64,000 nucleotides of DNA. Source: Sulfurospirillum multivorans DSM 12446 (GTDB taxonomy: Bacteria > Campylobacterota > Campylobacteria > Campylobacterales > Sulfurospirillaceae). The notes below the pieces were generated by a model, which saw only the letters and a program-made list of their open reading frames with translations, was not told the DNA's origin and did no database searches. Position numbers and translations under genes: made by a program. Below, piece by piece: positions 43,801 to 60,021 of the stretch (positions within the stretch are counted from its first letter, which is position 1; each line of letters starts with the position of its first letter). Location of the stretch: positions 2,861,654 to 2,925,653 of the forward strand of contig NZ_CP007201.1 of assembly GCF_000568815.1 (NCBI RefSeq). Direction: 5' to 3'.

Positions 43801-44111
43801 AGTTGTGTTCCAAAGCGGTTTGATTAGATAGCATAATCATACCATAAATGGTGCGATAAATTTTATGAATAGTTTCAAATGATAAAGTTACTTCCACCCT
43901 ATCCCTTTCATTTTTTTTCTTTGAACAAATTTATAATCTCATACAACTCCTCATTAATCTTATACTAGACGAATAGCAATTCTAGCCATACCCGATATTC
44001 CAAAAGCCTAAATATAGAGTGGACTTAAAATATATATATCTGCGCTTCATTTGGTATCTAGGTATTATACAAGGTGAATTTTCCAATTTTTAAGCCTTCT
44101 AAACCTCAAGA

Positions 44112-44132
44112 AATATAGAATTTTCCTATATT
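44112..44132 (-). terminator. Possible terminator after integrase gene
   Basis: AATATAG and CTATATT form a 7-bp stem, with TTCTT downstream on the minus strand, seven bases past the integrase stop. The rest of the 338-base gap to the Fic gene is AT-rich and shows no gene. It contains GCGCTTCATTTGGTA (near 44043), vaguely like an IS21 end. Confidence 0.4.
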
Positions 44133-44138
44133 CATATG

Positions 44139-45275
44139 CTACTTCTTGTCTGAATTAGAAGTATTTTTGACAACACTTAATAAATTGGCAACCATATCAG
44201 TGTCAACATTGGCATATCTCATTGTAGTTTGAATAGACCTATGTCCTAACGTTTTAGAAATTATGTGCAGTGGTAATTGTGCTTTTGAGGCACGATATCC
44301 TATAAGATGTCGCATATCATGCAAACGCATTTTCTCTGCACCCACAGTTTTTTTAATTTTTTCCCAAATTGTTCGAATATCTTTGCGATGTTCACCTTGC
44401 TCACTTGGGAAAATATATCCACTTGTTTGGGGACCTAATTCTTGAAGCGCAATAGCAATATCTTCAGTTAAAGGATAACTAAAACTTTTGTCTGCTTTTG
44501 TAATAGTGTCAGGTGTAGCATAAATTTTATTTTCAAAATCAATATACTCCCAACACATTTTTAATGTTTCGCCTCGTCTTCGGCCATTAATTAAAAATGC
44601 AAAAATTGCTTTATTTACAGGTGAAAGGTTTTGAATAACATCATAAAGCTTTAAAGCTTTTTCATCCGACAAAGCAAAATAAACTTGATTATCATATTTT
44701 TGAATTTCAATATCTTTTGCTGGGTTTTCTTTAATATATTTACGTTTGATTGCATAATTAAAAACCGCGCTAAGAATTTGTTTTGCCGTATGCGCTGTAC
44801 GAGGTTTATCTACACTTCTAAGAATGTCATTATAAAGAGTTTGAAGATAACCAACTTCAATTTCGTCGATTGATTTATCAAATAATACTACTAAATGTTT
44901 ATTAACATATGTCTTTCTAACATACTTCCATTTTGAGGAAACAATAGTTTCCTTGTCAACTTCATCAAATAACTCTTTAAAGGTCATTTTTAGCGGTCTG
45001 ATGGATTTAAAACTTTTTTCTATTTGAACAGTATCTCTTTTAGCTTGTAACTCATCACAAACTCGTTTCATTGTATGTCTAGCATCTGCAATATGTATTT
45101 GTTCTAACTTGAGTTTTTTACCCTCATAAAATTTTAAAACTATTGTATACGGTGGTTTGACTTTTTTTTGAAGTTCACTTGTCGTTACAATCGAGCAATC
45201 AAATAACGTTTTATCATTTTTAAAATATATTCCTGTATAGTTTTCAATCTTGATTAGTTTATCTTTTAATGACAT
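44139..45275 (-). CDS. int: Tyrosine recombinase (island integrase)
   Basis: This 378-residue phage-type integrase has an N-terminal arm-binding region, a SAM-like core-binding domain near 97-185, and a catalytic domain with R233 (NGRRRGETLKM), H319-R322 (LHDMRH), H345 (LGHRSIQT) and nucleophile Y354 (TMRYANV). All catalytic residues are present, so it may be active. It starts 138 bases from attR and near the GGTGACG tandem. It would recombine the two tRNA-Leu half sites. Confidence 0.93.
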   Translation of the reverse strand: MSLKDKLIKIENYTGIYFKNDKTLFDCSIVTTSELQKKVKPPYTIVLKFYEGKKLKLEQIHIADARHTMKRVCDELQAKRDTVQIEKSFKSIRPLKMTFKELFDEVDKETIVSSKWKYVRKTYVNKHLVVLFDKSIDEIEVGYLQTLYNDILRSVDKPRTAHTAKQILSAVFNYAIKRKYIKENPAKDIEIQKYDNQVYFALSDEKALKLYDVIQNLSPVNKAIFAFLINGRRRGETLKMCWEYIDFENKIYATPDTITKADKSFSYPLTEDIAIALQELGPQTSGYIFPSEQGEHRKDIRTIWEKIKKTVGAEKMRLHDMRHLIGYRASKAQLPLHIISKTLGHRSIQTTMRYANVDTDMVANLLSVVKNTSNSDKK

Positions 45276-45617: not shown

Positions 45618-46859
45618 TTAGAATTTATAATTCGCTTTGAACCAAAAATCGTGTCCATCAGCATCTTTTCCCCAATCTTGATACATAATATCTGTCGATA
45701 ATCCTTTAAGGGCGCCTACAAAGGTATATGTCGTATAAATATCGGTATAGGCATACTCTTTATCATTTGCATTATCCTCAACTCCGGTGTATCTTGCCCC
45801 CAATTTGAAATTAATGTTTTTAAATAAATAGTTTGCATCAACAGAATAGGCATCCGTATCTTTGGTAAAGGTGCCTGGTTTATTTTGTAATCCCTTGGCA
45901 AACACCGTTTGGGTGCCACCACCAAGACCACCGCCCATTGAATTACCTTTGATATCACCATCTTTGGTAATGGTAGTATACGCAACGTAGGTATTAAAAT
46001 CACCATACCCTAAACTGGCTTTTGCACCGTACATTTTGCCGTCTTCTTCATTCAACTTTTCAGTTACTTTATACTCATGGTTCAAAGCAAGACCATATCG
46101 ATATTCACCCAATGTATTGGCATAAGCAGCTTCTAGATAATAAAAATCACCTACGCCTGTAGCTGTATTATTACCATTAATGCCTAACCACTGCGCTGTC
46201 AATGTTGTATTGGAAAGCGATTTATTGATAGCAAGGAGTGTATAGGCATAGGAACCAAGAGCGGAATCAAGATTTTGAAAATCCGCAATATTTCCCGCAA
46301 AATCTGTTCTATCTTGATATTTTGTAATAACACCTGCAACGATAGTTGTTTGAGGAAGATCGGTATTGGTAAGCATAGCCCCTTCAAAGGATTGCAAAAT
46401 AATACGTGAAGGGCTACCTGCAACTAAAGGAGTGTTAATAAATTGGCGACCCACTTTAACAGATGTCTTATCAAGTGTATACTCTATATAGGCTTCTGAT
46501 AATACTGTGCCAGAACCATACATCTCATTTTTAAAATCATCTTTTGCCGTACCCGCAGTGCCAATAGCACCATCAGCAAAAGGCGAACTGCTTGATTGCA
46601 TCGTCGCACCCAATTTAAAGCCGTAGAAGGCATCCGTATTATAATGAAGCATAATACCTGTTGTGAAAATGTCAGAATTAATTTTTTCGGTTGCGGCAGT
46701 ACTTAAATTTGGCGAACCTTCTCTGTCAAAATAGTACGCCTTAATCTCTCCATTAATCTTTCCATTTTTAAAAGCATCCGCCAGTGTATCTGCTGCAAAT
46801 GAGCTAGTGGTTAAACCAGCAACAACGATCGTTACCAAACTAAGTTTAGCTAATTTCAT
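45618..46859 (-). CDS. Outer-membrane porin (Campylobacter MOMP/OprD-like), second copy
   Basis: This 413-residue precursor has signal peptide MKLAKLSLVTIVVAGLTTSS ending FAA, mature start DTLADAFKNGKINGEIKAYY, many amphipathic strands and a terminal WFKANYKF. It is of the same family as the island porin (shared VGRQFINTPLVAG and SLSNTTLTAQWLGINGN-type blocks) but clearly diverged. It lies outside attR. Its upstream region, from about 47.0 to 47.4 kb, is a duplicate of the promoter of the molybdoenzyme operon, so it may be expressed under the same conditions. Confidence 0.9.
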   Translation of the reverse strand: MKLAKLSLVTIVVAGLTTSSFAADTLADAFKNGKINGEIKAYYFDREGSPNLSTAATEKINSDIFTTGIMLHYNTDAFYGFKLGATMQSSSSPFADGAIGTAGTAKDDFKNEMYGSGTVLSEAYIEYTLDKTSVKVGRQFINTPLVAGSPSRIILQSFEGAMLTNTDLPQTTIVAGVITKYQDRTDFAGNIADFQNLDSALGSYAYTLLAINKSLSNTTLTAQWLGINGNNTATGVGDFYYLEAAYANTLGEYRYGLALNHEYKVTEKLNEEDGKMYGAKASLGYGDFNTYVAYTTITKDGDIKGNSMGGGLGGGTQTVFAKGLQNKPGTFTKDTDAYSVDANYLFKNINFKLGARYTGVEDNANDKEYAYTDIYTTYTFVGALKGLSTDIMYQDWGKDADGHDFWFKANYKF

Positions 46860-47001: not shown

Positions 47002-47046
47002 TTACATCTCAACCGTTTGTAACGAGATTTTTTCAGTCATATCCAT
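47002..47046 (-). pseudogene. Truncated copy of the molybdoenzyme-operon leader gene
   Basis: A 14-residue frame (MDMTEKISLQTVEM, then stop) matches the start of the leader protein at 55517-56131 (MDRTQKVSLQSLEEAM). Its position relative to the duplicated promoter is the same (138 versus 136 bases). It is the broken end of the duplicated segment. Confidence 0.75.
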
Positions 47047-47183
47047 TTTTGAATCCTTCCTCTGTGAAATCCAAATTCACGCTTTTCCTATCGTTACCCA
47101 AGAATCCCATGACCATAAGATTCTTTTACAAACAGATATAATAATGATTTATTTCTGTTTAGATTTATCGATTCATCTGTATC

Positions 47184-47213
47184 ATTATAAGATTCATTGC
47201 CACCTTTTATCAA
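47184..47213 (-). promoter_or_regulatory. Duplicated sigma70 promoter facing the second porin
   Basis: Read leftward: TTGATA (47208-47213), 18-base spacer, TATAAT (47184-47189). The spacer AAAGGTGGCAATGAATCT is nearly identical to the right copy. Downstream ATCTGT/ACAGAT motifs at 47175, 47153 (TTCTGT) and 47132 are kept. The porin ATG lies 325 bases downstream. Confidence 0.7.
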
Positions 47214-47545
47214 GACTATTATATATATTTTTATATTCTTTTTAATTTTAATATATTTCAGTATATAGCTACTTTTTTAAGAATAAATAACTTATCTATT
47301 AAAACTATTCTCAAAAAATATAAATGTATAAAATTAATTAATTATTTTTAATATTTTTATATTTTTTAGTGTTAAAATGAGTGAAATAGTTAATCTTATT
47401 CAATGACGTGATTTTTGTTGTTCTTTGATGCTTCTATTTTGGGCTATGCGAAGTATGTAACATGATTGAAAGTTTGGTATGATTATTCTATCAATCTTAT
47501 TTTACATGTAAGGTTTGAGGTTCACGTTTTATAAGGGAAGTGATT

Positions 47546-47854
47546 ATGCGCAAAAAACGTTCATCTTTTACAACTGAGTTTAAAACGCTGGTTGTTCTTG
47601 AAGCACTTAAAGGGGAACTAACCATTTCACAATTAGCCGCTAAGTATACGATTACATCTAAAAACATTCTCAATTGGAAACAACTCTTTTTAGACAATGC
47701 CGCGCTTGCTTTTGAAGCTAATAATTCAACCAAATCTTCCAAAGCCGAACTTGCCAAGCTCAAAAAAGAGAATGAAAAACTTGCCTCCAAATTATCCTCT
47801 TTAGCGTCTGAAAGGGATTATGCGATTGAAAAACTCAAAGATTTAGATTTATAA
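47546..47854 (+). CDS. IS3-type OrfA-like helix-turn-helix protein, C-terminus cut
   Basis: This 102-residue protein has the transposase_8 helix-turn-helix (TTEFKTLVVLEALKGELTIS, then KNILNWKQLFLDN) and a coiled-coil leucine/lysine tail (KLKKENEKLASKL). Compared with the copy at 56659 it ends early, at KDLDL, with no OrfB or DDE domain following. It may be an IS remnant or a retained DNA-binding protein. Ribosome-binding site GGGAAG precedes the ATG. TTACATGTAA lies 25 bases upstream at 47512. Confidence 0.75.
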   Translation: MRKKRSSFTTEFKTLVVLEALKGELTISQLAAKYTITSKNILNWKQLFLDNAALAFEANNSTKSSKAELAKLKKENEKLASKLSSLASERDYAIEKLKDLDL

Positions 47855-47894
47855 TACTTCTTTTCCACGCTCTAAGATTTTCTTGACAAATGCA

Positions 47895-48965
47895 CTAGGT
47901 ACTGTAAATTTTCGCCCCCAAAAGTTTACTCATTTTTTCAGCAACAAAGGGCAAAACATCTTCACTCTTTTGACGTTCATACAAAAGAGAATGTTCCGCT
48001 GTGAAAATCGAATGAAGATCAGTGTAAGCATCAAGCGTGATAGCCTTTTTAAAGCAAACATCCACGCATAAATGGCATGCAACGCAGCGTGAACGTTTAC
48101 ATGTAATCCTCAAATTCTCCTCGCTGGTATCTGTTTCAAGGGCTCCCGTTGGGCAGACATTGGCGCAGATAGTGCATCCGATGCACTGCGTCATATCGAT
48201 GGTTGGAGATAGAAATAAAGTATCATCGCTGCGAGTCAAAGGTATTTTCCCCGCCAATAGTTGTAAAGACTGAATAACCCGTTGATGCTTTTTGGGTACG
48301 GGTAATTTTGTAGTGTTATGTGTGATCTTTGCCGTTTCTACCAATGGTTCCACACGTTTTTGACGAAACAGTTTTAAAAAAAATGTTCTACGCGAATGAT
48401 CTTTACATGTAAGATTATTATCTGACATATTCTGTACGCATTCCCATGTAATTGGGGTATGAACCGTGCACAGATCAGCATATTTTTGTGTCATTTCAAT
48501 CGTTTTGTGAATGGAAGGCAACGTATGGTTAAGAGCGCATTTGTGGCACTCTCCTGAGATCAGTTTAATTTCCGATGCACCTTTTGCAAAGGCAAGAAGA
48601 AGCAAAGAAGGCTCAAGCCGTGCAAGGCAGTTGAGAGAAATTGCACCTTCAGACTTCGTTTCAGATTCTTTACATGTAAAGATAATTTTCGCATTCAAAC
48701 CAGCCCTAGCGATCATTTCTTCTTCAAGTTGTGCATCACTTGGCGTTAGAACTTCGATAACACCCATTGGACAAACACTCGCACACGCTCCACATTGAAG
48801 ACAAAGCGCAGCATCGTAAATAGGATGATTTAGGGTGAGCGTTATAGCACCTGTTGGACACGCTTCACTGCAACATTGGCACGTTGAGGCTTTATGCAAA
48901 TAGCGTGTACACTGCTCTTGCGCAATGCTCACCCCTGTATTTTCTAACCTCTTGTCTTTTACCAT
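47895..48965 (-). CDS. Multi-cluster ferredoxin-like protein (NapF-like)
   Basis: This 356-residue cytosolic Fe-S protein has two N-terminal [4Fe-4S] motifs (CQCCSEACP near 29, CLQCGACASVCP near 55) and two C-terminal ones (CIGCTICANVCP near 263, CVACHLCVDVCF near 291). These flank a middle domain with further cysteines (GECHKCALNH near 144). No signal peptide or membrane segment is visible. It is the last gene of the molybdoenzyme operon, so it likely delivers electrons for enzyme maturation or acts in cytosolic electron supply, as proposed for NapF. Three TTACATGTAA copies lie inside it. Confidence 0.82.
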   Translation of the reverse strand: MVKDKRLENTGVSIAQEQCTRYLHKASTCQCCSEACPTGAITLTLNHPIYDAALCLQCGACASVCPMGVIEVLTPSDAQLEEEMIARAGLNAKIIFTCKESETKSEGAISLNCLARLEPSLLLLAFAKGASEIKLISGECHKCALNHTLPSIHKTIEMTQKYADLCTVHTPITWECVQNMSDNNLTCKDHSRRTFFLKLFRQKRVEPLVETAKITHNTTKLPVPKKHQRVIQSLQLLAGKIPLTRSDDTLFLSPTIDMTQCIGCTICANVCPTGALETDTSEENLRITCKRSRCVACHLCVDVCFKKAITLDAYTDLHSIFTAEHSLLYERQKSEDVLPFVAEKMSKLLGAKIYST

Positions 48966-48976
48966 TGCATTTTGCC

Positions 48977-49822
48977 TTAAAGGGGCTTATCTTTTTTTTG
49001 ACTAAAAAAAGGAAATTTGATCGCACTCATTGGACACACATCCGCACAGTCACGACACTTTGTACACCTCGAAAGGGTTGAAGCCTTGGCTGGTTCATGC
49101 AGATCAATCGCCTCATTGCAGACACTTTTGCACAGCTTACACTCAATTCCTTTACTGGTTTGCAGACATTTCGTTGGATCAATTTTGGGACGTGTAAAAA
49201 TATTTAAACGGCTTACCAAAGAGATCAGTGCACCTAAAGGGCAAAATTTGCTGCAAGAGTACCGATAAAATACCAACTCTAACACCAAGATCACAGGAAA
49301 GATAAGCAGCGACCATGTTGGTTCATTAAACTGTATCAATCGCCAAGCACCAATCAATACCGCAAAGGTTAACCCCACAGGACAAATCAAACAAAAGACA
49401 GGAAACCCAAAGATAAAGCTTGATGTCAAAGCGCCACCTAATACAAAATAACTGGTATCTACCGTCTTTGAAATTTTTGCAGAGGAAGTGTGTAGCTCTT
49501 TTTCCGCAGGGTCTATTTTTGGATTATTTTTAGGAAACCATTTGCGAAACAGAGGAACAGGGCATGCCCAAGCGCAAAAAATACGACCAAAAAGGATGGT
49601 AATCAACACAAATACCGCCAAAGAAATCACTACCTGAGGTATGAATGTTCTGCTGGCTAATTGCGCTTCAAGAGAGCCCAAAGGACAAATGGCGGAGATC
49701 GTTTGATACCCAAACGCAGAAATAGTTCCCGTGCCTGTGTGGAAAGCCAAACCGATGATCACCAACAGTACAAACGCTAAAATCGTCAGGGTACGAAGGG
49801 TTGATGCTTTAATTTTTTTCAT
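48977..49822 (-). CDS. NapH-like membrane ferredoxin
   Basis: This 281-residue inner-membrane protein has about four to five membrane helices, the CxxxCP motifs typical of NapH/NosR-type proteins (FCAWACPVP near 80 and KFCPLGAL near 186), and two C-terminal [4Fe-4S] motifs (CKLCKSVC and CTKCRDCADVCP). The start at 49822 overlaps the NapG-like stop (ATGA). NapGH forms a quinol dehydrogenase that passes electrons to periplasmic reductases. Here it would be a second quinol-oxidising module in an operon that also has a DmsC-like anchor. Confidence 0.85.
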   Translation of the reverse strand: MKKIKASTLRTLTILAFVLLVIIGLAFHTGTGTISAFGYQTISAICPLGSLEAQLASRTFIPQVVISLAVFVLITILFGRIFCAWACPVPLFRKWFPKNNPKIDPAEKELHTSSAKISKTVDTSYFVLGGALTSSFIFGFPVFCLICPVGLTFAVLIGAWRLIQFNEPTWSLLIFPVILVLELVFYRYSCSKFCPLGALISLVSRLNIFTRPKIDPTKCLQTSKGIECKLCKSVCNEAIDLHEPAKASTLSRCTKCRDCADVCPMSAIKFPFFSQKKDKPL

Positions 49823-50451
49823 ATGATTGCCTCTTTTACTATGGGTCTCACTTCGATACCACGCACTGTTCCGCCGATATACGATCTTAAAACAAGGGCT
49901 GGGCATATTTTTTCACAAACGCCACATCCATTGCATTTATCAGCATCAATGATAGGTCGTTTTTGATCATCTAACGAAATCGCTTTATATTCGCATGCTT
50001 CAAAACAGAGTGTACAGCCGCCATAGTTGAGGGCAATACAGGTGTCGGTGAGGGTTGCTAGTCCAATTTTAACCGTTTGTTTATCAAAAGGCTCTAGGGC
50101 TTGTGTGGGACAGACCTCAACACATTGGTTACAAAAATCACAAAACCCGAGGTGAAACTTCATCACAGGCGTTCGCGCAGTAATAAATCCCTCTTCAATG
50201 GGAGCAACACCAATGACAGACGTGTGGCACACGCTTCTACAACGATCACATTTGATACATTTTGCCCTAAACGCATCTTCATTTTGCCCGCCTGGAGGAC
50301 GAAGCAACTTTTGCGTTTTACTCTGTGCTCCAACAAACCCAAGACCAAGCATGACGACAATACCTGCGCTTGCTGAGAGGAATGAGCGACGCTGAAAGCT
50401 TTTTGAAGCTTTGGTGGTATTTTTTTCCGTATACAATTCATTCTGTTTCAT
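49819..50451 (-). CDS. NapG-like periplasmic ferredoxin, Tat-exported
   Basis: This 210-residue protein has a twin-arginine motif (FQRRSFLSAS near 20) and hydrophobic stretch. Four [4Fe-4S] binding sets follow: CIKCDRCRSVCH near 65, CDFCNQCVEVCP near 104, CTLCFEAC near 146 and CNGCGVCEKICP near 173. It is the partner of the NapH-like protein, relaying electrons from quinol across the membrane to the periplasm. It is coupled to napH by ATGA overlap. Confidence 0.86.
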   Translation of the reverse strand: MKQNELYTEKNTTKASKSFQRRSFLSASAGIVVMLGLGFVGAQSKTQKLLRPPGGQNEDAFRAKCIKCDRCRSVCHTSVIGVAPIEEGFITARTPVMKFHLGFCDFCNQCVEVCPTQALEPFDKQTVKIGLATLTDTCIALNYGGCTLCFEACEYKAISLDDQKRPIIDADKCNGCGVCEKICPALVLRSYIGGTVRGIEVRPIVKEAII

Positions 50452-50503
50452 TCTGGTTTCACTCTTTTCTTAGAATAGATCACGCTTCATTCTAAAAGAT
50501 CGA

Positions 50504-51229
50504 TTACGATGCATCTTTTGTGCTATTTTCGATACCCATTTCATTATTGCTTGACACCATCGTTTCGCTCAAATACTGGATCATGAGCGTATCCAAGTTT
50601 AAATATCCATGGGTTATTTTGCCAATCGCTTTGTAGAAATCAACGTGTGCACATTTTTGAATGTCGGCACAAAATTCGCTCATCCAATTAAGCAGGTGCT
50701 GTTCTAAAAACTCTTTTTGTATCTGAAGTGACACAGCAACCGAAGACCAATCCTTTAAAATGAAAGCCTCTTTGGCTTCATGGCATAAATATGCCATAAA
50801 TTCCAGCTCAAGACCGACATGATCCTCAGGAATATCCAAAGCTTCATCTTTATCCAAACCTTTCTCACGGTAAAGGGCAAGCACCTTATCTCTGGCATCT
50901 TGCATAATGAGTCGCTCAGGACTGGTGTACACAGACTCATACGGATACGCAACCGTACCATCGGCAATGCCAGCACCTAAAAAAACAGCCGCATAGTCAA
51001 CTGCAAGTTCGGTTAATACGTCTATTTTTGGTTGTTTAAAATAGTCCTCAAACAGTTGGTATCCCTCAGCCAGTTCACTTTCACTGCCGCTACACTCTTT
51101 TGAAAAGTGCATGTGTGACATGTGATCTAACAATGTTTTGTCTACTTCGAGCTTGTATATTCGACCCAAAAATTGGTACATATTTTCGCGATTTTCCATT
51201 AAGGTTATAATTTCAGTTAATTGATTCAT
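50504..51229 (-). CDS. TorD-family molybdoenzyme chaperone
   Basis: This 241-residue all-helical cytosolic protein is of the TorD/DmsD type (ENMYQFLGRIYKLEV near 13, VDYAAVFLGAGIADGTVAYPYESVY near 85, and the E-x-D-H-V-GLELEFMAYLC block near 137). Such chaperones bind the Tat signal of the catalytic subunit and aid cofactor insertion. The start at 51229 is preferred, since family similarity begins there; the frame is open about 24 codons further. It lies between the anchor and NapG-like genes. Confidence 0.85.
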   Translation of the reverse strand: MNQLTEIITLMENRENMYQFLGRIYKLEVDKTLLDHMSHMHFSKECSGSESELAEGYQLFEDYFKQPKIDVLTELAVDYAAVFLGAGIADGTVAYPYESVYTSPERLIMQDARDKVLALYREKGLDKDEALDIPEDHVGLELEFMAYLCHEAKEAFILKDWSSVAVSLQIQKEFLEQHLLNWMSEFCADIQKCAHVDFYKAIGKITHGYLNLDTLMIQYLSETMVSSNNEMGIENSTKDAS

Positions 51230-51308
51230 CTGTTTTCCAATGCTAGTAAGATTATGAAGCGATGTTAAACGAATGAGAGAGGCTAAAACCTCTCTCATCA
51301 TCCCTCAT

Positions 51309-52139
51309 TTAGAAAAACTGCCAAACCGTAGAGCCCAAATTAAACATCAGCACTCTAAAGGCGGCGGCTCCTATAAAAACACACACCAATCCAAGCGCTG
51401 CTGACATTGCTGAAGCGACACTCTCTTTCTTAAGCGTGGTTAAGCCAAAAGGGATCAAAAGCCCAATAATGACGATTCCACCCCAAAATAGAGCAGAAAA
51501 TCCTCCCATCAAAACCTGCGTGGCGGATCTACTGACATCACTGTAAGGGGCATTGGATAAGGCAACTAAATAAGCAACCATTAAAACCGCTTGTATAACC
51601 AATAAGCCTTGCATAAGCAATTTCAACTGAGTCACCAAGTGCTCACTAGGGTTTACAACCAATATCCTATACGCAAAGCAACCTAAAACAGCCGCTGAAC
51701 CTAAATAAGCAAAAGGTAACACCAGCGTATCCCACGCTGGACGCGAAGCCATAACATACGAGTCACCTACGGCAAACGCAAGGATCACCGCAGGAACGGC
51801 ACCGATCAATGTGATCAGTTTAAGATTTTGATGCGATGCATTGCGTTTGAGCGCAAAAAGGTATGCCAACACACAAATGCCCGTAATTGCTATCATAGAA
51901 GACTCAATGAAAATACCAGAGGTTGGATGACTAAACGCTCCAAAAATTCTCTCTGGATGGCCTAAGTGTAATACACTGGATACGCCACCAAGCGCTAATG
52001 TAACAAGCACTGCGATAGCCCCACGCCATCGTACTTGTGGATTGATACTGAACCATTCATTAATGGCTAATGCAACAAACAATCCACACCCCAAGTCAAC
52101 AAACGATGTAAAAAAGACTAATGACCATTCGCTACCCAT
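51309..52139 (-). CDS. DmsC-like membrane anchor subunit
   Basis: This 276-residue protein has about eight membrane helices and belongs to the DmsC anchor family (VSSVLHLGHPERIFGAFSHP near 55, the quinol-site region). It would oxidise menaquinol and pass electrons through the Fe-S subunit to the molybdoenzyme. It overlaps the Fe-S subunit gene by eight bases. NrfD-type anchors are the alternative, but the HLGHPxR motif favours DmsC. Confidence 0.86.
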   Translation of the reverse strand: MGSEWSLVFFTSFVDLGCGLFVALAINEWFSINPQVRWRGAIAVLVTLALGGVSSVLHLGHPERIFGAFSHPTSGIFIESSMIAITGICVLAYLFALKRNASHQNLKLITLIGAVPAVILAFAVGDSYVMASRPAWDTLVLPFAYLGSAAVLGCFAYRILVVNPSEHLVTQLKLLMQGLLVIQAVLMVAYLVALSNAPYSDVSRSATQVLMGGFSALFWGGIVIIGLLIPFGLTTLKKESVASAMSAALGLVCVFIGAAAFRVLMFNLGSTVWQFF

Positions 52140-52770
52140 GTTGTTTATCTCCCTTTCGTCCAGATTGATTACTATTTCTCCACGTCTCTTTGGGTGGAGT
52201 TGCTTGCCATGCAGCTGTCTTGCGGTGTAAGATATATTTCACAGAAGGGTGGTTACCACTATCGGGTAAAGTATGAATATTATCACTTCCCGCTTCTCTT
52301 AATACTTTTGAAATATGACTGTTTGGATCTTCGATGTCTCCAAATGTTCGCGCTTTCGAGCAACAGACTTTCACACAAGCAGGTTCTTCGCCAATGGCTT
52401 GAAGGTGTCCGCACAGTGTGCATTTTTCAACAACTTTTTGAGCTTCATTGAAAGAACGCGCACCGTAAGGACATGCCATCATGCAGTATTTACAGCCAAT
52501 GCACAGCTCTTTATTGACAAGCACCGTACCATCAGCCGCTTTATACGCGGCACCCGTTGGACAGACGCCCACACACGGGGCGTCATAGCATTGTTGACAA
52601 ATGGTTGGCAGAAAATACTGTTCAAGATCAGGAAATGTTCCTGTTGGTCCAATTGTCAACACTTTATTGTAATAAACACCTAGCGCAACGTCATTCTCCA
52701 TCTTACATGCAATTTCGCACGAGTAACAGCCGATGCAGCGGTCTAGGTCAATAACCATTGTATTTTTCAT
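52132..52770 (-). CDS. Molybdoenzyme Fe-S subunit (DmsB/PsrB-like)
   Basis: This 212-residue protein has four [4Fe-4S] motifs: CIGCYSCEIAC near 14, CQQCYDAPCVGVCP near 58, CIGCKYCMMACPYG near 91 and CTLCGHLQAIGEEPACVKVC near 117-136. It is the electron-transfer subunit between anchor and catalytic subunit. It has no signal peptide of its own, as usual for subunits exported by riding with the Tat-signalled partner. Ribosome-binding site AAAGGA precedes the ATG. Confidence 0.92.
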   Translation of the reverse strand: MKNTMVIDLDRCIGCYSCEIACKMENDVALGVYYNKVLTIGPTGTFPDLEQYFLPTICQQCYDAPCVGVCPTGAAYKAADGTVLVNKELCIGCKYCMMACPYGARSFNEAQKVVEKCTLCGHLQAIGEEPACVKVCCSKARTFGDIEDPNSHISKVLREAGSDNIHTLPDSGNHPSVKYILHRKTAAWQATPPKETWRNSNQSGRKGDKQHG

Positions 52771-52791
52771 ATGTAAATTCCTTTGTTAAAG

Positions 52792-55491
52792 TTACAGAAC
52801 CACAGTTTTGGTTGCATCCGTTGGCTCAGGAAGCCACGGTTTGAAATCTTCCGGCTTTTGCCAAATACCTTTTGGTGCGCTATTGGCTTTAGAAATCTTA
52901 ACTTGATAGCCACGCAACGTATACGTTCCAAACATATCATTGTAAGGACCTGTATATTTGGAGAGAACATTCACATTCATCTCTTTCCAGCCTTTTGTAG
53001 GACTATCAAGGGTTTCAGGATTCCAAAAACGTTCCATGTAAACCGTATTCGGTGGGATTCCCTCCGTGACACGTGCTTTTGCTTGGATCTTTCCACGAAG
53101 TGATTCAACCCAAACCCAATCACCTTGTGCTACACCGTATTTTTGAGCCGCAATTGGGTTAACCCAAATCTCAGCTACAGGAAAAATCTCACGAAGAAAT
53201 GGGCTATTGCGCAATGTTCCGTGATGGTAGATTGGTAAACGTCCATTGGTCATGACCAGTGGGTACTCTTTTCCCGTTTCAGATTTTGGATTTTCAGGTG
53301 GCTCCATATAGTAAGGAAGCGGATCGTAATCTTTGGAAGATGGTGGAAGATCATACGTTGTCCAAGGACGACCTGTACGACCCAGTGTTATAAAGCTCTC
53401 ACCATACACTTCACATTTTTTAGAAGGTGTTCCAAACCCTTTTGGTTTTCCTGTTTTTGGATCAATCTCTTTATAAATGTAATAGCGTCTCCACTCATTA
53501 TAAGGAACATAATCAAAAGGAACTTTAGCTTTATACTCTGCCCATGTCATGCCAAAGTATTGACTCCACCCATCTAACTGCTCTTCATAGGTGTTATAGT
53601 AAGGAAGCTCAGGTGCAGTTTCTTTAGGATCAAAGGCTCGCTTGCATGCTTCATGTCCAAGCTCACCACATTTTTTCGCCAACCTTGCCCAAAAGAAACT
53701 CTCATTACAGGTCTCCCAAAGATGTGTAACGGCTTGCCTAGCAAACATACGGTTGTGAGAACTGACAATAAAATCAGACTCTAACCATTCATTCATAGGA
53801 AGAAGATAATCCGCATAAGCTGAAAATGACGTAGGATAGACAAAGGCATGGACGACTAAATCCAATTGATTTAACCCTTCAATCCATTTAGCAGCGTCCG
53901 CGACCACAGCAAGTTTATTGCCAGAGCGCTCAATCCACGCATGAATGCCATAAGGTTTACGTGTTGTCATCGCTTCTAATAAGGCACCCGGTTGCGCAAC
54001 CCACCACCTTAGCATTCCCTTATGCTCAATACTTCCTAAACGTTTACGTAGCTGCTCTTCAGGAAGGAATTCTTTCAACATCGTGGTACGAAGATTGCCG
54101 ATTCCACCCCCGGCGTAACGTTGTAAAGCCGTACCTGGTTTTTCAACGTTCCCCATGAGCATATCAAGCGCTGCTGTACACATAGGCGCTTGCGCCGAAT
54201 TGACATTGTGATCGGTTGCGACCCCTAGCGCAATACTTGAAGGCGTGTTTTTGGCATACAGATTGATTGCTTTTTCAATTTTATGGGCTTCTAATCCACA
54301 CTCTTCGGCGACGCTTGCAATGGTAAAAGGCTCTACGCGCTCTTTAAGAAGGCTAAAACCTGTTTTACATGTAACGCCATTAACGCTAAAAGCACCTTCT
54401 AATGCAGGATCTAAATTATCATCCCATGGATAGGCAATTGGCTTAGCTGCATTGGTTTTTTTATCCCAAACAACAAAGGTATCCGCACGGCCACCGACGA
54501 TCAGATCACTTTCGCGAAGGAGCATTTTTGTTTTGGTATTGACAAGATAAGGAAGATTGGTCCACTTCATGACAAAATCAAGGTCATACATGTTTTTTTC
54601 AATAATATATTTAATCCATCCCATCATCAATGCAACATCAGTGCCTGGACGAATCGGTAACCAGATATCTGCCTTAGCAGCGTCAGGTGTAAAACGTGGA
54701 TCAATCACGATCGTTTGAACACCACGTGCACGAAGTTCCACTAAAGCACGTCCTGCTTGAGAAGGTCCACTGTACGATGGATCTGTTCCCCACAGTACAA
54801 ACGTTTTCATCTTGATGTCATCGTAAAAATACGCTTCGATACAGTTAGAATCGCCTAAGCTTGTATTGCCAGAAGGTCCACCACCGTACATCATTTGATA
54901 GACCATTTGACGTGGCATATAACATTGTGAAGCACCAGGTTCAAACCAATTTGGGGTACCAAAAACATCACAAAAACGACAACAGCTGAGGAAGTTTGGA
55001 TTTCCGCCACCGCCAGTGCTTCCCATGACCGCTTCGGCACCATATTTTTCACGGATTTCCATCAATTTTTTAGCAATGTCATCCAGTGCTTCATCCCAAG
55101 TGACACGCATCCATTTATTTTCACCACGCGCACCCATACGCTTCATTGGGTATTTATTGCGTTGAGGATGGTACAGTGCTGTAATTCCAGATAAGCCTTT
55201 AACGCATAAAGCACCTTCACTTCTCTCAAAGTCAGGATCGCCTTCAAGCTTAATCACACGACCATCTCGCACATGCGCTAAAACGCCACAATCGGCAGTA
55301 CAGCTACGACAGTTCGTCTTCATAATTTTTGTTCCGGTACGTTCTTTGGTCATTGCAGTTTCGCTGGCTGCATTCGCCCGTGGGACAAGCCCACTTGACC
55401 ACGAACTGCTTAGCGCACCAAAGGCGCCTATAACAGCAGTCGTCTTGAGAAAATCTCTTCTCCCGAGCGCTGGTTGTTCTATTTTTTCCAT
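52792..55491 (-). CDS. Tat-exported molybdopterin oxidoreductase catalytic subunit
   Basis: This 899-residue DMSO-reductase-family enzyme has twin-arginine signal GRRDFLKTT near 10-18 and [4Fe-4S] ligands C61, C64, C68 and C96 (CRSCTADC...GALCVKG). Molybdopterin-binding blocks are FVLWGTDPSYSGPSQAG near 231 and VIDPRFTPDAAKADIWLPIR near 265; C190 in GASQCYMPRQ is the likely Mo ligand. Length and pattern exceed PsrA/PhsA and resemble the large group that includes arsenate reductases and catechol dehydroxylases, so the substrate is open. AAGGAG precedes the ATG. Confidence 0.9.
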   Translation of the reverse strand: MEKIEQPALGRRDFLKTTAVIGAFGALSSSWSSGLVPRANAASETAMTKERTGTKIMKTNCRSCTADCGVLAHVRDGRVIKLEGDPDFERSEGALCVKGLSGITALYHPQRNKYPMKRMGARGENKWMRVTWDEALDDIAKKLMEIREKYGAEAVMGSTGGGGNPNFLSCCRFCDVFGTPNWFEPGASQCYMPRQMVYQMMYGGGPSGNTSLGDSNCIEAYFYDDIKMKTFVLWGTDPSYSGPSQAGRALVELRARGVQTIVIDPRFTPDAAKADIWLPIRPGTDVALMMGWIKYIIEKNMYDLDFVMKWTNLPYLVNTKTKMLLRESDLIVGGRADTFVVWDKKTNAAKPIAYPWDDNLDPALEGAFSVNGVTCKTGFSLLKERVEPFTIASVAEECGLEAHKIEKAINLYAKNTPSSIALGVATDHNVNSAQAPMCTAALDMLMGNVEKPGTALQRYAGGGIGNLRTTMLKEFLPEEQLRKRLGSIEHKGMLRWWVAQPGALLEAMTTRKPYGIHAWIERSGNKLAVVADAAKWIEGLNQLDLVVHAFVYPTSFSAYADYLLPMNEWLESDFIVSSHNRMFARQAVTHLWETCNESFFWARLAKKCGELGHEACKRAFDPKETAPELPYYNTYEEQLDGWSQYFGMTWAEYKAKVPFDYVPYNEWRRYYIYKEIDPKTGKPKGFGTPSKKCEVYGESFITLGRTGRPWTTYDLPPSSKDYDPLPYYMEPPENPKSETGKEYPLVMTNGRLPIYHHGTLRNSPFLREIFPVAEIWVNPIAAQKYGVAQGDWVWVESLRGKIQAKARVTEGIPPNTVYMERFWNPETLDSPTKGWKEMNVNVLSKYTGPYNDMFGTYTLRGYQVKISKANSAPKGIWQKPEDFKPWLPEPTDATKTVVL

Positions 55492-55516
55492 AAAGTTCTC
55501 CTTATAGGGTCAATCA

Positions 55517-56131
55517 TTAGGAATGAAGATTGGCTGTATGTATAGACGATGATCCATTTTCATTCATCGCGTTCATGCCCATACGTGTCGTTTGCCATTT
55601 GTCTCTCCACTCCAAACCGCCGGCATTTTCAAGTGTCTCAATGAAATAGTTTGCATAAATTTTCGGACTTTCAAGAATCGGATTGCCTCGTAACATTACC
55701 TCAATTTCTGCTCTGGTTTGAGGAGCAACGCATGTGCTTAAAATTTGCCAATAGACGCTCACATAGGCAGGTTCTTGCATGAATAATGCGGCTATCTTAT
55801 CGCCACTGTTTTCTTTATCCAGCACCGCCTTTCCTGCTATCGTCGTACGGAACATAAGCGCTTTTTCTTCTCTATCCGCTAAAACCACTTCTTCTATTCC
55901 ATCGCACTCAATCAACCATGAGAGCAATAGTGAAACAGGCTGCAAAGAACTTTTCATCTCAGGATATGAGCATACTTCTTTAGCTATATCAACTGACGAG
56001 TGTGTTTCTTGGCAGAATGCAAGCATTTTAAAAAGAACGGTTTTATAGGCAGGTTCATAGACTATTCTTTGATGAATTTTTGCCATAGCTTCTTCTAAGC
56101 TTTGTAACGAGACCTTTTGAGTCCTATCCAT
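55517..56131 (-). CDS. Leader protein of molybdoenzyme operon, two similar helical domains
   Basis: This 204-residue protein is of no family I recognise. Two halves look alike: EPAYKTVLFKMLAFC near 30 and EPAYVSVYWQILSTC near 128, each followed by about 45 residues ending in L-IE-x-x-GG/DGIEE-type segments, a winged-helix-like pattern. It may regulate or assist the reductase. The ATG at 56131 (MDRTQKVSLQ) follows AAAGGATTGAAA and is preferred because the truncated duplicate at 47046 keeps exactly this start. First gene of the operon, 136 bases after the promoter. Confidence 0.72.
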   Translation of the reverse strand: MDRTQKVSLQSLEEAMAKIHQRIVYEPAYKTVLFKMLAFCQETHSSVDIAKEVCSYPEMKSSLQPVSLLLSWLIECDGIEEVVLADREEKALMFRTTIAGKAVLDKENSGDKIAALFMQEPAYVSVYWQILSTCVAPQTRAEIEVMLRGNPILESPKIYANYFIETLENAGGLEWRDKWQTTRMGMNAMNENGSSSIHTANLHS

Positions 56132-56215
56132 TTTCAATCCTTTACCTATCAAATCTACATTCACTCTATTAACACAGTTACCCAAGAATCCTCTGGTCAT
56201 AAGATTCTCTTACAA

Positions 56216-56263
56216 ACAGATACAATAATGATATGATCTGTTTAGATTAATCGATTCATCTGT
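56216..56263. promoter_or_regulatory. Repeated ATCTGT/ACAGAT motifs in operon leader
   Basis: ACAGAT (56216), ATCTGT (56236) and ATCTGT (56258) lie between the -10 element and the leader gene, with about 20-22-base spacing. The same motifs (one as TTCTGT) occur at the left copy. Conservation in both duplicates suggests a regulator-binding site. Confidence 0.55.
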
Positions 56264-56266
56264 GTC

Positions 56267-56296
56267 ATTATATGCTTCATTGCCACCTTTTGTCAA
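56267..56296 (-). promoter_or_regulatory. Sigma70 promoter of molybdoenzyme operon
   Basis: Read leftward: TTGACA (56291-56296), 18-base spacer, TATAAT (56267-56272). Both hexamers are full consensus. The start point would fall near 56260, over the ATCTGT motif, a position suited to repression. Confidence 0.75.
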
Positions 56297-56658
56297 GACA
56301 TATTTTATTAATTATTTATTCTTTTAATATCTCTTATAGTTTGCTATATCAATTTTTATATAAAAATAGATTACTTATTTTGTGAAATACTTCTCTAAAG
56401 TATTTAATATTTATAATTAATAATTTATTTTTAGTAATTTTCAACAATTTAGTGCTAGAATTATCGCAATATATAATTTTATATAAAGATTTTTTCGTTT
56501 TTATTTTTCTTATTTACGTTGATTGAGTGTTAATGAGGTATTTAAAATTATTGAAAGTTTGGTAAGATTGTTCAAGTGATCTTGTTTTTAACGTGTTTTA
56601 CATGTAATGGTTTATCATTACGTTGTTGACACTTTAAAAGGGAATGTATAGGGGAGTT

Positions 56659-57321
56659 ATGATGAGTAGAAAACGTTCAACTTTTACGACTGAGTTTAAA
56701 ACGCACGTTGTTCTTGAAGCGCTTCAAGGGGAACTAACCATTTCACAATTAGCCACTAAATATGCTATTACATCTAAAAACATTCTCAATTGGAAACAAC
56801 TTTTTTTAGACAATGCCGCGCTTGCTTTTGAAGCTACTGACTCAACCAAATCTTCCAAAGCCGAACTTGCCAAGCTCAAAAAGGAGAATGAAAAACTAAA
56901 CGCTAAACTCAATAACGTAGCTTCGCAAAGGGATGCGGCGATCACGAAACTTCAAGGACTCGATGTCGCTGTCAAAAAGAAGCTCATCGATACACACTAC
57001 AGCAAGCTCTCTATTGCTAGGCAATGTGAAATTATCAATCTGAATCGCACTTCTCTTTATTATGCACCCAAACCAACCGATGACAAAGACGCAAAAATCA
57101 TCAATCGAATTCAGGAAATTCACACATCCATCTCCTCCGCTTACGGTTACCGTATGATGCATCAGCAACTGATTAAAGAGGGGTATCGTATTGGCGTCAA
57201 TAAAGTACACAAGCTTATGAAAATGATGGAGCTACAAGCGAAACAGAAACAGGATGATCAAAACAAGATTCATCCCTATCTCTTACACGATCTTTCCCTT
57301 GCAAAACCAACTAAATTATAG
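56659..57321 (+). CDS. IS3-type OrfA fused to the start of OrfB, catalytic domain missing
   Basis: This 220-residue frame has an N-terminal transposase_8 helix-turn-helix and coiled coil nearly identical to 47546-47854. It then continues without a frameshift into an OrfB-like HTH_21 region (IARQCEIINLNRTSLYYAPK and ISSAYGYRMMHQQLIKEGYR). It ends before any DDE (rve) core. IS3 elements normally make OrfAB by frameshifting, so an in-frame fusion lacking catalysis is either a remnant or a retained DNA-binding protein. GGGGAG precedes the start. TTACATGTAA lies on both sides (56598, 57322). Confidence 0.75.
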   Translation: MMSRKRSTFTTEFKTHVVLEALQGELTISQLATKYAITSKNILNWKQLFLDNAALAFEATDSTKSSKAELAKLKKENEKLNAKLNNVASQRDAAITKLQGLDVAVKKKLIDTHYSKLSIARQCEIINLNRTSLYYAPKPTDDKDAKIINRIQEIHTSISSAYGYRMMHQQLIKEGYRIGVNKVHKLMKMMELQAKQKQDDQNKIHPYLLHDLSLAKPTKL

Positions 57322-57355: not shown

Positions 57356-57754
57356 TTAGTTAATCAATAAATAATCTAAGGCAATGATCTCACGCTGTTT
57401 TTTCTCTAACGTATGGCTTCGCGCATTCATCAACCTTCTGTTGTGCGCGATAGATAAGCTTTGCAACGCACACCATACCACATCTCGCTCCGTTGTAACT
57501 TTTTCCACCATGAATGTTAATTTTTGATTCTCTTTAACATACTGTTCAACCCTTCTTTTTAATGCTTTTTTGGATCTTTGCGTCTCAAATATCTGTGAAG
57601 CATTGGCTAAGAATTGTTGTTTCCACATCGAAAGATTTTCAACGGTTGTTCCATATTGGGTGGCAATCTCTATGAGGTTAGGTTTTCCGTGTAACAATTC
57701 AAGAACAATTTTTGTCTTTAGTTCAGTGCTAAAGGTTATGGGTGATTGATTCAT
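57356..57754 (-). CDS. OrfA-like helix-turn-helix protein
   Basis: This 132-residue protein has a transposase_8-type N-terminus (FSTELKTKIVLELLHGKPNL, then NLSMWKQQFLANA), a basic coiled-coil middle (KKALKRRVEQYVKENQKL) and a novel tail (NARSHTLEKKQREIIALDYL). No OrfB follows. It is diverged from the other two OrfA-like genes and convergent with one of them. Intact length and a ribosome-binding site (AAGGAGGAATT) suggest it may be expressed. Confidence 0.7.
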   Translation of the reverse strand: MNQSPITFSTELKTKIVLELLHGKPNLIEIATQYGTTVENLSMWKQQFLANASQIFETQRSKKALKRRVEQYVKENQKLTFMVEKVTTERDVVWCALQSLSIAHNRRLMNARSHTLEKKQREIIALDYLLIN

Positions 57755-58058: not shown

Positions 58059-58727
58059 ATGATAAAAATTTTACTGATTGAAGATGATGTCGAATTAGCA
58101 CGTCTCCTTCAACGCATACTTTTAACAGAAGAAGTCGAAACAGTCATGGCTTTTAATCCTGTTGAGGGGTTGAAAATCCTTGAGCATGAGACATTTGATG
58201 CCCTCGTGTTGGATCTTTCCCTACCCCAAATTGATGGCTTAGATGTCTGTCGCACCGTGAGGGCATCGTTTCCAGATCTTCCCATTATTATCTCATCTGC
58301 AAGGTCAGATACCGTCGATAAGATCATTGGTTTTGAACTCGGGGCAGATGATTATCTTCCAAAGCCTTATGAACCAATAGAATTAGCCTTTAGATTACGC
58401 GCTATTTTACGAAGAGGCATTCACGTAAAAACATCTTCGGAAGTTTTTAGTATTGATGAAAAACAACATGTTATCAAACGCAATAATCGTGAATTGAACC
58501 TCACAAAAGCTGAATATGATATTATGGCTTTTCTGCTTGACAAAGAAGGTTTTGTTATCTCACGCGAAGAGCTTTTGCTCAATATCAATTCGATTAAATT
58601 TCAAAGTGGACTCAAAAGTATTGATGTTATTATTGGACGAATTCGTCAAAAAATAGGCGATGATCCCAAAAATCCTCATTCTATCCTCTCTGTCAGAGGG
58701 GTAGGGTATAAATTTATCAATGCGTAA
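58059..58727 (+). CDS. OmpR-family response regulator
   Basis: This 222-residue protein has a receiver domain (acidic pair in LIEDDVELA, phospho-acceptor D52 in LVLDLSLPQIDG, lysine in YLPKPYEPIEL) and an OmpR winged helix (ending HSILSVRGVGYKFINA). It overlaps the histidine kinase gene by eight bases. Being adjacent to the molybdoenzyme operon, it is the best candidate to act on the duplicated ATCTGT-bearing promoters, but this is inferred from position only. Confidence 0.93.
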   Translation: MIKILLIEDDVELARLLQRILLTEEVETVMAFNPVEGLKILEHETFDALVLDLSLPQIDGLDVCRTVRASFPDLPIIISSARSDTVDKIIGFELGADDYLPKPYEPIELAFRLRAILRRGIHVKTSSEVFSIDEKQHVIKRNNRELNLTKAEYDIMAFLLDKEGFVISREELLLNINSIKFQSGLKSIDVIIGRIRQKIGDDPKNPHSILSVRGVGYKFINA

Positions 58728-60021
58728 TATTTCAATTATTAAACTTATCTCCTTTTTTTTTATTTTGGCGCTTGTCGTTATTAATATCTCTTTTACCATT
58801 GAATACAACAGGCAAATTAAGGACTTAAACTACTTTACCTTTCAACGTTTTATGATGGGAATGCGCACGATTGGAGAAGAGCCTCACAATAAGGATGCTC
58901 TGCTTGCAGAGCTTGGTATTAAACTAAGCGATACTCCAAAAAATGAGATACGCACCAACGGCAAAAAACTTCTTGAAGATTCGTATTGTGATATGATTTT
59001 GTATCACAATACACTCTATTTTGTCCCACGCGATCCCCCTCCTCCTAAAAAAGCTATGGTTAAAATCATGCTATTAGCAGGCATTGCTCCAAAGTCTGAT
59101 GAAGAAGTCATTTCAATGGATGATCGACCCGCACTTGAAAACTTAGAAAATTTTTCACTCAATCGTTTATGGATTTTATGGGGAACCATGAATGTCGTAA
59201 CCGTGATCTTTTTTATTATTGTCTTACGCAAGCTATTACGACTCCGTAATTTAAAAAGTGCTATTCGCGCGTTTGGTGATCAAACAATCTTTCAAGAAAT
59301 CCCCGTAGATAGTAAAGATGAATTGGGAGAAATTGCGGCTGAATTTAATCTCGCTATGAAAAAAATTCACCTCTTGAAAGAATCTCGAACGCTCTTTTTG
59401 CGCAATATTTTACATGAGCTTAGAACACCTGTCATGAAAGGAAAAATCCTCGCAAGCATTATTAAAGATGACGAGTTTAAAGGACAGCTCAGGCAGATAT
59501 TTATTCGGCAAGAGGTGCTTTTAGGCGAAATGGTCAAAGTTGAAAAATTGGCTTCTAACGAATGGATATTATCCACCAAAGAGTACCGCTTGGTGGACAT
59601 TTTAGACCATGCAATTGACCTTCTTTTGATGCACGATACAAAGCGCATCTGTATTAATGCCGAAGATACGACGCCTATTCTTATGGCTGATTTTGAGCTT
59701 TTAGCCACGGCTGTTAAAAACTTACTGGATAATGCCCTCAAATATTCTAAAAATGACGTTATCGTTGATATATGTCCCGATCATATTAGTATCTGCAGTG
59801 ATGGTGAAAAAATTCCTGAACAACGACTAGATTTTACACGCGCCTTTAACCGTGATATAGAAAGTACCAGTATTGGTTTGGGGCTTGGACTTTATATCGC
59901 CAACAGTATTATTTTGAAACACTCATTTGATCTTCTTTACCATCATGAAAATGGGAAAAACTATTTTCGCATCTTTTTTCAACCCATCTTACATAAGCCA
60001 TACGAAGAAACTTCTGCCTAA
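58720..60021 (+). CDS. Sensor histidine kinase
   Basis: This 433-residue membrane kinase has TM1 at about 6-28, a periplasmic sensor of about 120 residues (with PRDPPPPKKA near 103), TM2 near 150-170 and a HAMP-like linker. The phospho-accepting H232 lies in LRNILHELRTPVMKG, followed by the N-box LLDNALKYS near 337 and G-box GLGLGLYIANSI near 387. Overall it resembles the ArsS-type kinases of Campylobacterota. It pairs with the overlapping response regulator. The signal is unknown. Confidence 0.92.
   Translation: MRNISIIKLISFFFILALVVINISFTIEYNRQIKDLNYFTFQRFMMGMRTIGEEPHNKDALLAELGIKLSDTPKNEIRTNGKKLLEDSYCDMILYHNTLYFVPRDPPPPKKAMVKIMLLAGIAPKSDEEVISMDDRPALENLENFSLNRLWILWGTMNVVTVIFFIIVLRKLLRLRNLKSAIRAFGDQTIFQEIPVDSKDELGEIAAEFNLAMKKIHLLKESRTLFLRNILHELRTPVMKGKILASIIKDDEFKGQLRQIFIRQEVLLGEMVKVEKLASNEWILSTKEYRLVDILDHAIDLLLMHDTKRICINAEDTTPILMADFELLATAVKNLLDNALKYSKNDVIVDICPDHISICSDGEKIPEQRLDFTRAFNRDIESTSIGLGLGLYIANSIILKHSFDLLYHHENGKNYFRIFFQPILHKPYEETSA

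What the first reader, a model, noticed from the sequence alone, without database searches (positions are those of the whole stretch)
47016..56950. Promoter, leader-gene start and orfA-like gene duplicated 9 kb apart, placing a porin under the molybdoenzyme promoter
47016-47220 and 56101-56300 share long runs, including -35/-10 hexamers with an 18-base spacer and the first codons of the leader gene. In the left copy the leader gene stops after 14 codons and a porin gene follows. A matching orfA-like gene lies at the far end of both. This looks like regulatory duplication that co-opts a porin into the same regulon as a periplasmic reductase.
Basis: partly seen in the sequence, partly recalled or inferred. 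Interest (0 to 1): 0.72.

Follow-up and report, generated by a model that had tools for sequence, protein, structure and literature searches.

The report
Twin promoter units linking porin and reductase
In a Sulfurospirillum bacterium, a respiratory metal-enzyme operon and an outer-membrane pore gene each start from a copy of the same old promoter module, each with a divergent gene for a tamed transposon DNA-binding protein; relatives show the two were already together, so the pore was not newly captured by a copied promoter.

Summary
The repeat is real: 47016-47820 matches 56101-56936 at 75% over 860 nt (E 1e-171). It holds a sigma70-like core promoter (P1 TTGATA-18-TATAAT, P2 TTGACA-18-TATAAT), the first codons of the leader gene (a 14-codon stub before the porin) and a divergent IS3 OrfA-like gene. 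Both copies occur in three Sulfurospirillum genomes. A fourth, divergent genome has both units at the same syntenic positions, but there the porin lies directly downstream of dmsABC. So the porin-reductase link is old and dmsABC changed operon; 'promoter duplication co-opted a porin' is not the best history, while shared regulation is well supported. The core motif TTGAYAAAWRGTGGC occurs exactly twice in each of the four cluster genomes, always at P1 and P2, and three times in 20 cluster-less congeners. The OrfA genes are not mobile: the DDE domain is absent, they are under purifying selection, and gene conversion has homogenised exactly the DNA-binding half (codons 1-78: dS 0.15-0.5; codons 79-102 mostly saturated). 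Best reading: a two-promoter regulon, probably run by the adjacent OmpR-type two-component system and/or the domesticated OrfA proteins, co-producing a periplasmic molybdoenzyme and a dedicated OprD-type porin. No expression data were available.

The parts
45618..46859 (-). OprD-type outer membrane porin gene, behind P1
   Evidence: Pfam OprD 2.9e-9; dN/dS 0.02-0.07
47002..47046 (-). 14-codon remnant of the leader-gene start (MDMTEKISLQTVEM*)
   Evidence: frameshifted in G012
47100..47125 (-). 5' UTR inverted repeat/hairpin (counterpart in P2), one compensatory change in G012
47184..47213 (-). P1 core promoter TTGATA-N18-TATAAT with conserved GTGGC in the spacer
47546..47854 (+). orfA_L: domesticated IS3 OrfA-like HTH protein (102 aa), divergent from P1
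   Evidence: HTH_Tnp_1 9.6e-9; dN/dS 0.08-0.19
47546..47781 (+). gene-conversion tract over the HTH half of orfA_L (partner 56662-56897)
47895..48965 (-). 4Fe-4S polyferredoxin, last gene of the reductase operon
48977..49906 (-). NapH-like membrane ferredoxin (the ORF start overlaps napG and is probably too far upstream)
   Evidence: Fer4_5
49819..50451 (-). NapG/NapF-like ferredoxin
50504..51301 (-). TorD/DmsD-like chaperone (true start probably further in)
   Evidence: Nitrate_red_del 3.8e-31
51309..52139 (-). DmsC/NrfD-like membrane anchor; hairpin downstream
52132..52770 (-). DmsB/ArrB-like Fe-S subunit
52792..55491 (-). Tat-exported molybdopterin enzyme, Cys at the metal-ligand position, closest PDB sequence acetylene hydratase
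55517..56131 (-). leader gene: 204-aa protein modelled as two winged-helix-like modules, known only with this cluster
56267..56296 (-). P2 core promoter TTGACA-N18-TATAAT with conserved GTGGC in the spacer
56662..57321 (+). orfA_R: OrfA plus HTH_21 part of an IS3 transposase, ends before the DDE domain, divergent from P2
   Evidence: dN/dS 0.08-0.20
57356..57754 (-). orfC: third, more diverged OrfA-like gene
58059..58727 (+). OmpR-family response regulator
   Evidence: Response_reg + Trans_reg_C
58720..60021 (+). sensor histidine kinase
   Evidence: HATPase_c

Best explanation
The two repeats are two old copies of one regulatory module: a core promoter with a divergent gene for a domesticated IS3 OrfA-type HTH protein. 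They drive one small regulon. P2 drives leader-dmsABC-torD-napG-napH-ferredoxin, a periplasmic molybdoenzyme that takes electrons from the quinol pool. P1 drives an OprD-type porin that probably lets the enzyme's substrate or product cross the outer membrane. The porin is directly downstream of dmsABC behind P1 in G017; in the window's lineage dmsABC sits in the P2 operon and the porin alone is behind P1. SHOWN: duplication, shared core motif restricted to P1/P2, alternative gene order in G017, purifying selection on orfA_L and orfA_R, gene conversion over their HTH halves. INFERRED: the same regulator acts at both promoters (adjacent OmpR-type two-component system, with or without the OrfA proteins), porin and reductase are made together, and gene conversion is kept because both OrfA proteins must read the same operators.
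For: Repeat E 1e-171, only two copies in the genome. Both units in G000, G006, G012; same synteny in G017 with porin downstream of dmsC. Core motif TTGAYAAAWRGTGGC: exactly 2 per cluster genome, all 8 at P1/P2, against 3 in 20 other congeners; it is the main conserved stretch of the promoter regions out to G017. No terminator-like site between P1 and the porin. dN/dS 0.08-0.2 for orfA_L and orfA_R. L/R dS in codons 1-78 is 0.15-0.51, ortholog-like, but over 1.2 (mostly saturated) in codons 79-102; the tree rejects L-only and R-only clades, p 0.002 and 0.003. RR/HK adjacent in all four cluster genomes. In S. multivorans most RpoD promoters have weak -35 boxes and another response regulator (RR2) binds across the -35 (PMC7755780), so a conserved -35/spacer motif plausibly includes an operator. 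Nearest porin relatives belong to organic-solute transporter operons.
Against: No transcription-start, expression or binding data. The promoter match is to a consensus only. The direction of the dmsABC move cannot be polarised because no outgroup has the cluster. The G017 dmsC-porin gap holds a hairpin that may reduce read-through. G017 is a metagenome-assembled genome. OrfA binding to P1/P2 is untested.
Confidence: 0.7

Rival explanations
1. One reading: a promoter-plus-leader-start segment was duplicated from the reductase operon to a place upstream of an unrelated porin, co-opting it.
For: The P1 copy carries a broken leader-gene start, as expected if P2 sequence was copied over P1.
Against: G017 has both units at the same positions and the porin already next to dmsABC. 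The orfA_L/orfA_R 3' parts are mostly saturated at synonymous sites while their 5' parts are not, so an old duplication was overwritten later by gene conversion.
Confidence: 0.15
2. The orfA-like genes are dead or passing IS3 fragments; the repeat is two remnants of one insertion sequence that brought similar flanks.
For: OrfA homology to IS3 transposases; a full-length relative is in the same genome.
Against: Intact frames under purifying selection, the same positions and the same truncation points in two divergent lineages, no further copies, set apart from the mobile relatives sampled in the tree (98/94).
Confidence: 0.08
3. The similarity of the two units is kept by selection on the same RNA or DNA elements rather than by gene conversion, and the OrfA proteins have a role unrelated to these promoters.
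For: The AT-rich part between promoter and orfA is only 62% alike, so homogenisation is not over one long tract.
Against: Synonymous sites of the HTH half are as similar between paralogs as between orthologs, with a sharp edge at codon 78, which selection on protein alone does not give.
Confidence: 0.2

Closest known systems
Complex iron-sulfur molybdoenzyme operons (Psr/Phs, Dms, catechol dehydroxylases) with NapGH-type quinol dehydrogenase genes
   Same: Tat-exported Mo subunit, Fe-S subunit, NrfD/DmsC anchor, TorD-like chaperone, NapG/NapH genes.
   Different: No curated family cut-off reached; closest PDB sequence is acetylene hydratase; extra leader gene, paired porin and OrfA-like genes.
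PCE-responsive two-component regulon of Sulfurospirillum (PceS/PceP, PMC7755780)
   Same: Same genus; respiratory operons under several promoters that share a cis element around the -35 box, read by one two-component system.
   Different: Different motif, two promoters only, a molybdoenzyme instead of a reductive dehalogenase, plus OrfA-like genes at each promoter.
IS3-family transposase OrfA/OrfAB
   Same: HTH_Tnp_1 N-terminus and, in orfA_R, HTH_21.
   Different: No DDE domain, no sign of mobility, vertical descent with the cluster, purifying selection.
OprD-family porins co-operonic with uptake systems
   Same: Nearest relatives (63-65%) lie in TRAP/branched-chain ABC transporter operons.
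   Different: Here linked to a periplasmic reductase, with no inner-membrane transporter.

Membership tests
IS3 insertion sequence | OrfA-type HTH N-terminus | tested here: met
   HTH_Tnp_1 9e-9
IS3 insertion sequence | OrfB DDE catalytic domain | tested here: not met
   Absent; frame ends before it in both lineages and no remnant is detectable nearby
IS3 insertion sequence | further copies or varied positions | tested here: not met
   Two copies only, same synteny in four genomes
IS3 insertion sequence | terminal inverted repeats and target-site duplication | not tested
   Not searched for specifically
Complex iron-sulfur molybdoenzyme | Mo-bis-MGD catalytic subunit, Fe-S subunit, membrane anchor | tested here: met
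   Pfam Molybdopterin 2.8e-32, Fer4_11 2.6e-22, DmsC 1.4e-13
Catechol dehydroxylase | closest characterised homologue acetylene hydratase; Tat signal; Fe-S partner and anchor | tested here: met
   criteria from PMC7028382; the RRDFLK Tat motif is read from the sequence
Catechol dehydroxylase | over 30% identity to a proven dehydroxylase, or activity | not testable with these tools
   No Eggerthella reference sequence at hand
OprD porin family | OprD profile match | tested here: met
   PF03573 2.9e-9, above its cut-off

The most novel reading that the evidence does not exclude
A domesticated IS3 OrfA family has become the local transcription regulator of a respiratory regulon. Each of two promoters carries its own divergent OrfA gene, and the HTH halves of the two paralogs are kept matched by repeated gene conversion, so that two regulators and two promoters evolve in concert.
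Probability: 0.4. Interest if true: 0.65.

Novelty: new variant of a known kind. Interest (0 to 1): 0.45.

Why it matters
It gives a compact two-promoter regulon in which a periplasmic reductase is matched with an outer-membrane pore. It shows how an operon can be re-partitioned while its genes stay under the same control. It also offers a testable bacterial case of transposase HTH domains kept by selection and homogenised domain by domain, possibly as transcription regulators. The porin pairing hints that the uncharacterised enzyme acts on an organic solute.

Tried and rejected
Riboswitch or other known RNA in the shared 5' UTR: no Rfam match. Leader fold search: two winged-helix-like modules, but no hit below E 1e-3, so no function assigned. 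Wider regulon: the 2-mismatch genome scan is barely above its control, 93 against 60. Other truncated OrfA homologues in the order (G136, G064) are not beside respiratory genes. Wider search for the leader or enzyme: only four genomes in the genus, so the move of dmsABC could not be polarised. Enzyme homologues on plasmids only at 25-28% identity. The papers read did not describe this cluster.

Full report
WHERE. The window lies in a 3,175,729-base single-contig genome. A congener held as G012 has a contig of the same length, 55,639 bases, as Sulfurospirillum sp. UBA1314 contig DBTO01000187.1, and G017's contig likewise matches MAG CTSoil_042; so the genus is Sulfurospirillum.

OBSERVATION. 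The repeat is confirmed: 75% over 860 alignment columns, E 1e-171. Conservation is uneven: leader start 88%, 5' UTR 79%, core promoter 89%, AT-rich stretch 62%, orfA codons 1-78 92%, orfA end 47%. P2 is a perfect 12/12 sigma70 consensus and P1 11/12, both with 18-base spacers, and no terminator-like site follows P1 or P2. The genome holds no third copy. The 14-codon leader stub is intact in G000 and G006 but frameshifted in G012, so it is a relic.

ANATOMY. P2 faces leader - dmsA - dmsB - dmsC - torD - napG - napH - polyferredoxin. The Mo enzyme carries a Tat-type RRDFLK motif, has Cys at the metal-ligand position in the alignment with acetylene hydratase and thiosulfate reductase, and its best PDB match is acetylene hydratase. 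Catechol dehydroxylases have acetylene hydratase as their closest characterised relative and also carry Tat, Fe-S and anchor parts (PMC7028382); an organic substrate is therefore a fair guess, no more. P1 faces an OprD-type porin. Its nearest relatives elsewhere in the genus lie in TRAP and branched-chain ABC transporter operons (transporter names read from the protein sequences, not from a profile search), which fits a porin for an organic solute. Beyond P2 lie orfA_R, orfC and an OmpR-type response regulator with its kinase.

RELATIVES. G006 and G012 have the same arrangement. In G017 the order is porin < dmsC < dmsB < dmsA < P1 / orfA_L > then ferredoxin < napH < napG < torD < leader < P2 / orfA_R > then orfC < and RR > HK >. 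The two promoter/orfA units, the convergent ferredoxin, orfC and RR/HK keep their places; only dmsABC has changed place. The porin is behind P1 in all four. Hence the link of porin and reductase is old, and the promoter was not freshly duplicated to capture the porin. Which state came first cannot be told, since no other genome searched has the cluster.

SHARED CONTROL. In an alignment of all eight promoter regions the stretch GT.TTGAYAAA..GTGGC with the -10 hexamer is the main part conserved out to G017. As an exact pattern, TTGAYAAAWRGTGGC occurs twice in each cluster genome, always at P1 and P2, and three times in total in the 20 other congeners. In S. multivorans most RpoD promoters have a weak -35 box and the PCE regulator RR2 binds around the -35 (PMC7755780). 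A conserved -35/spacer element at just two promoters, near a two-component system, is what a two-promoter regulon should look like. Which protein reads it is inference.

THE ORFA GENES. orfA_L ends where IS3 OrfA ends; orfA_R continues through HTH_21 and stops before the DDE domain; both endings are the same in G017. dN/dS within the clade is 0.08-0.19 (L) and 0.08-0.20 (R), but 0.2-0.7 for orfC, so the case for function is strong for L and R and weak for orfC. L and R do not form position-wise clades (AU p 0.0017 and 0.0028); the two G017 copies are sisters (99/97), though branches are long there. Within the S. multivorans clade, codons 1-78 of L and R are as alike as orthologs (88-94%, dS 0.15-0.51), while codons 79-102 are 54-58% alike with dS above 1.2, mostly saturated. 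In the window pair 32 of 50 mismatches fall in the last 72 of 306 bases (no shuffle in 100,000 matched this). That is a gene-conversion tract confined to the DNA-binding half.

WHAT IS SHOWN AND WHAT IS NOT. Shown by sequence: the duplication, its age relative to G017, alternative operon membership of dmsABC, purifying selection, conversion, and the restricted core motif. Not shown: transcription starts, co-expression, the regulator, the substrate, and any OrfA function.

VERDICT.

Noticed in passing
whole window, e.g. 47502, 48097, 48403, 48670, 54365, 56598, 57323: The palindrome TTACATGTAA occurs 25 times in the window (0.19 expected), 1,484 times in the genome (reversed control 2) and 49 to 1,496 times in each of 24 congeners. 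It looks like a highly iterated palindrome of the HIP1 kind; none of the 18 papers holding this string appeared, by title and abstract, to concern Sulfurospirillum.
   Followed up: partly
55517-56131: The leader protein is modelled as two tandem winged-helix-like modules and is found only with this cluster.
   Followed up: partly
47100-47125 and P2 counterpart: Hairpin in the shared 5' UTR; G012 P1 shows one compensatory C-G to T-A change.
   Followed up: partly
51235-51312 and L018:5196-5276: A strong hairpin follows dmsC in both gene orders (before torD in the window, before the porin in G017), as if it travelled with dmsABC or marks partial termination.
   Followed up: partly
42673-45275: Fic protein and phage-type integrase next to the porin; G017 also has a distant integrase relative on the far side of the porin.
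   Followed up: no
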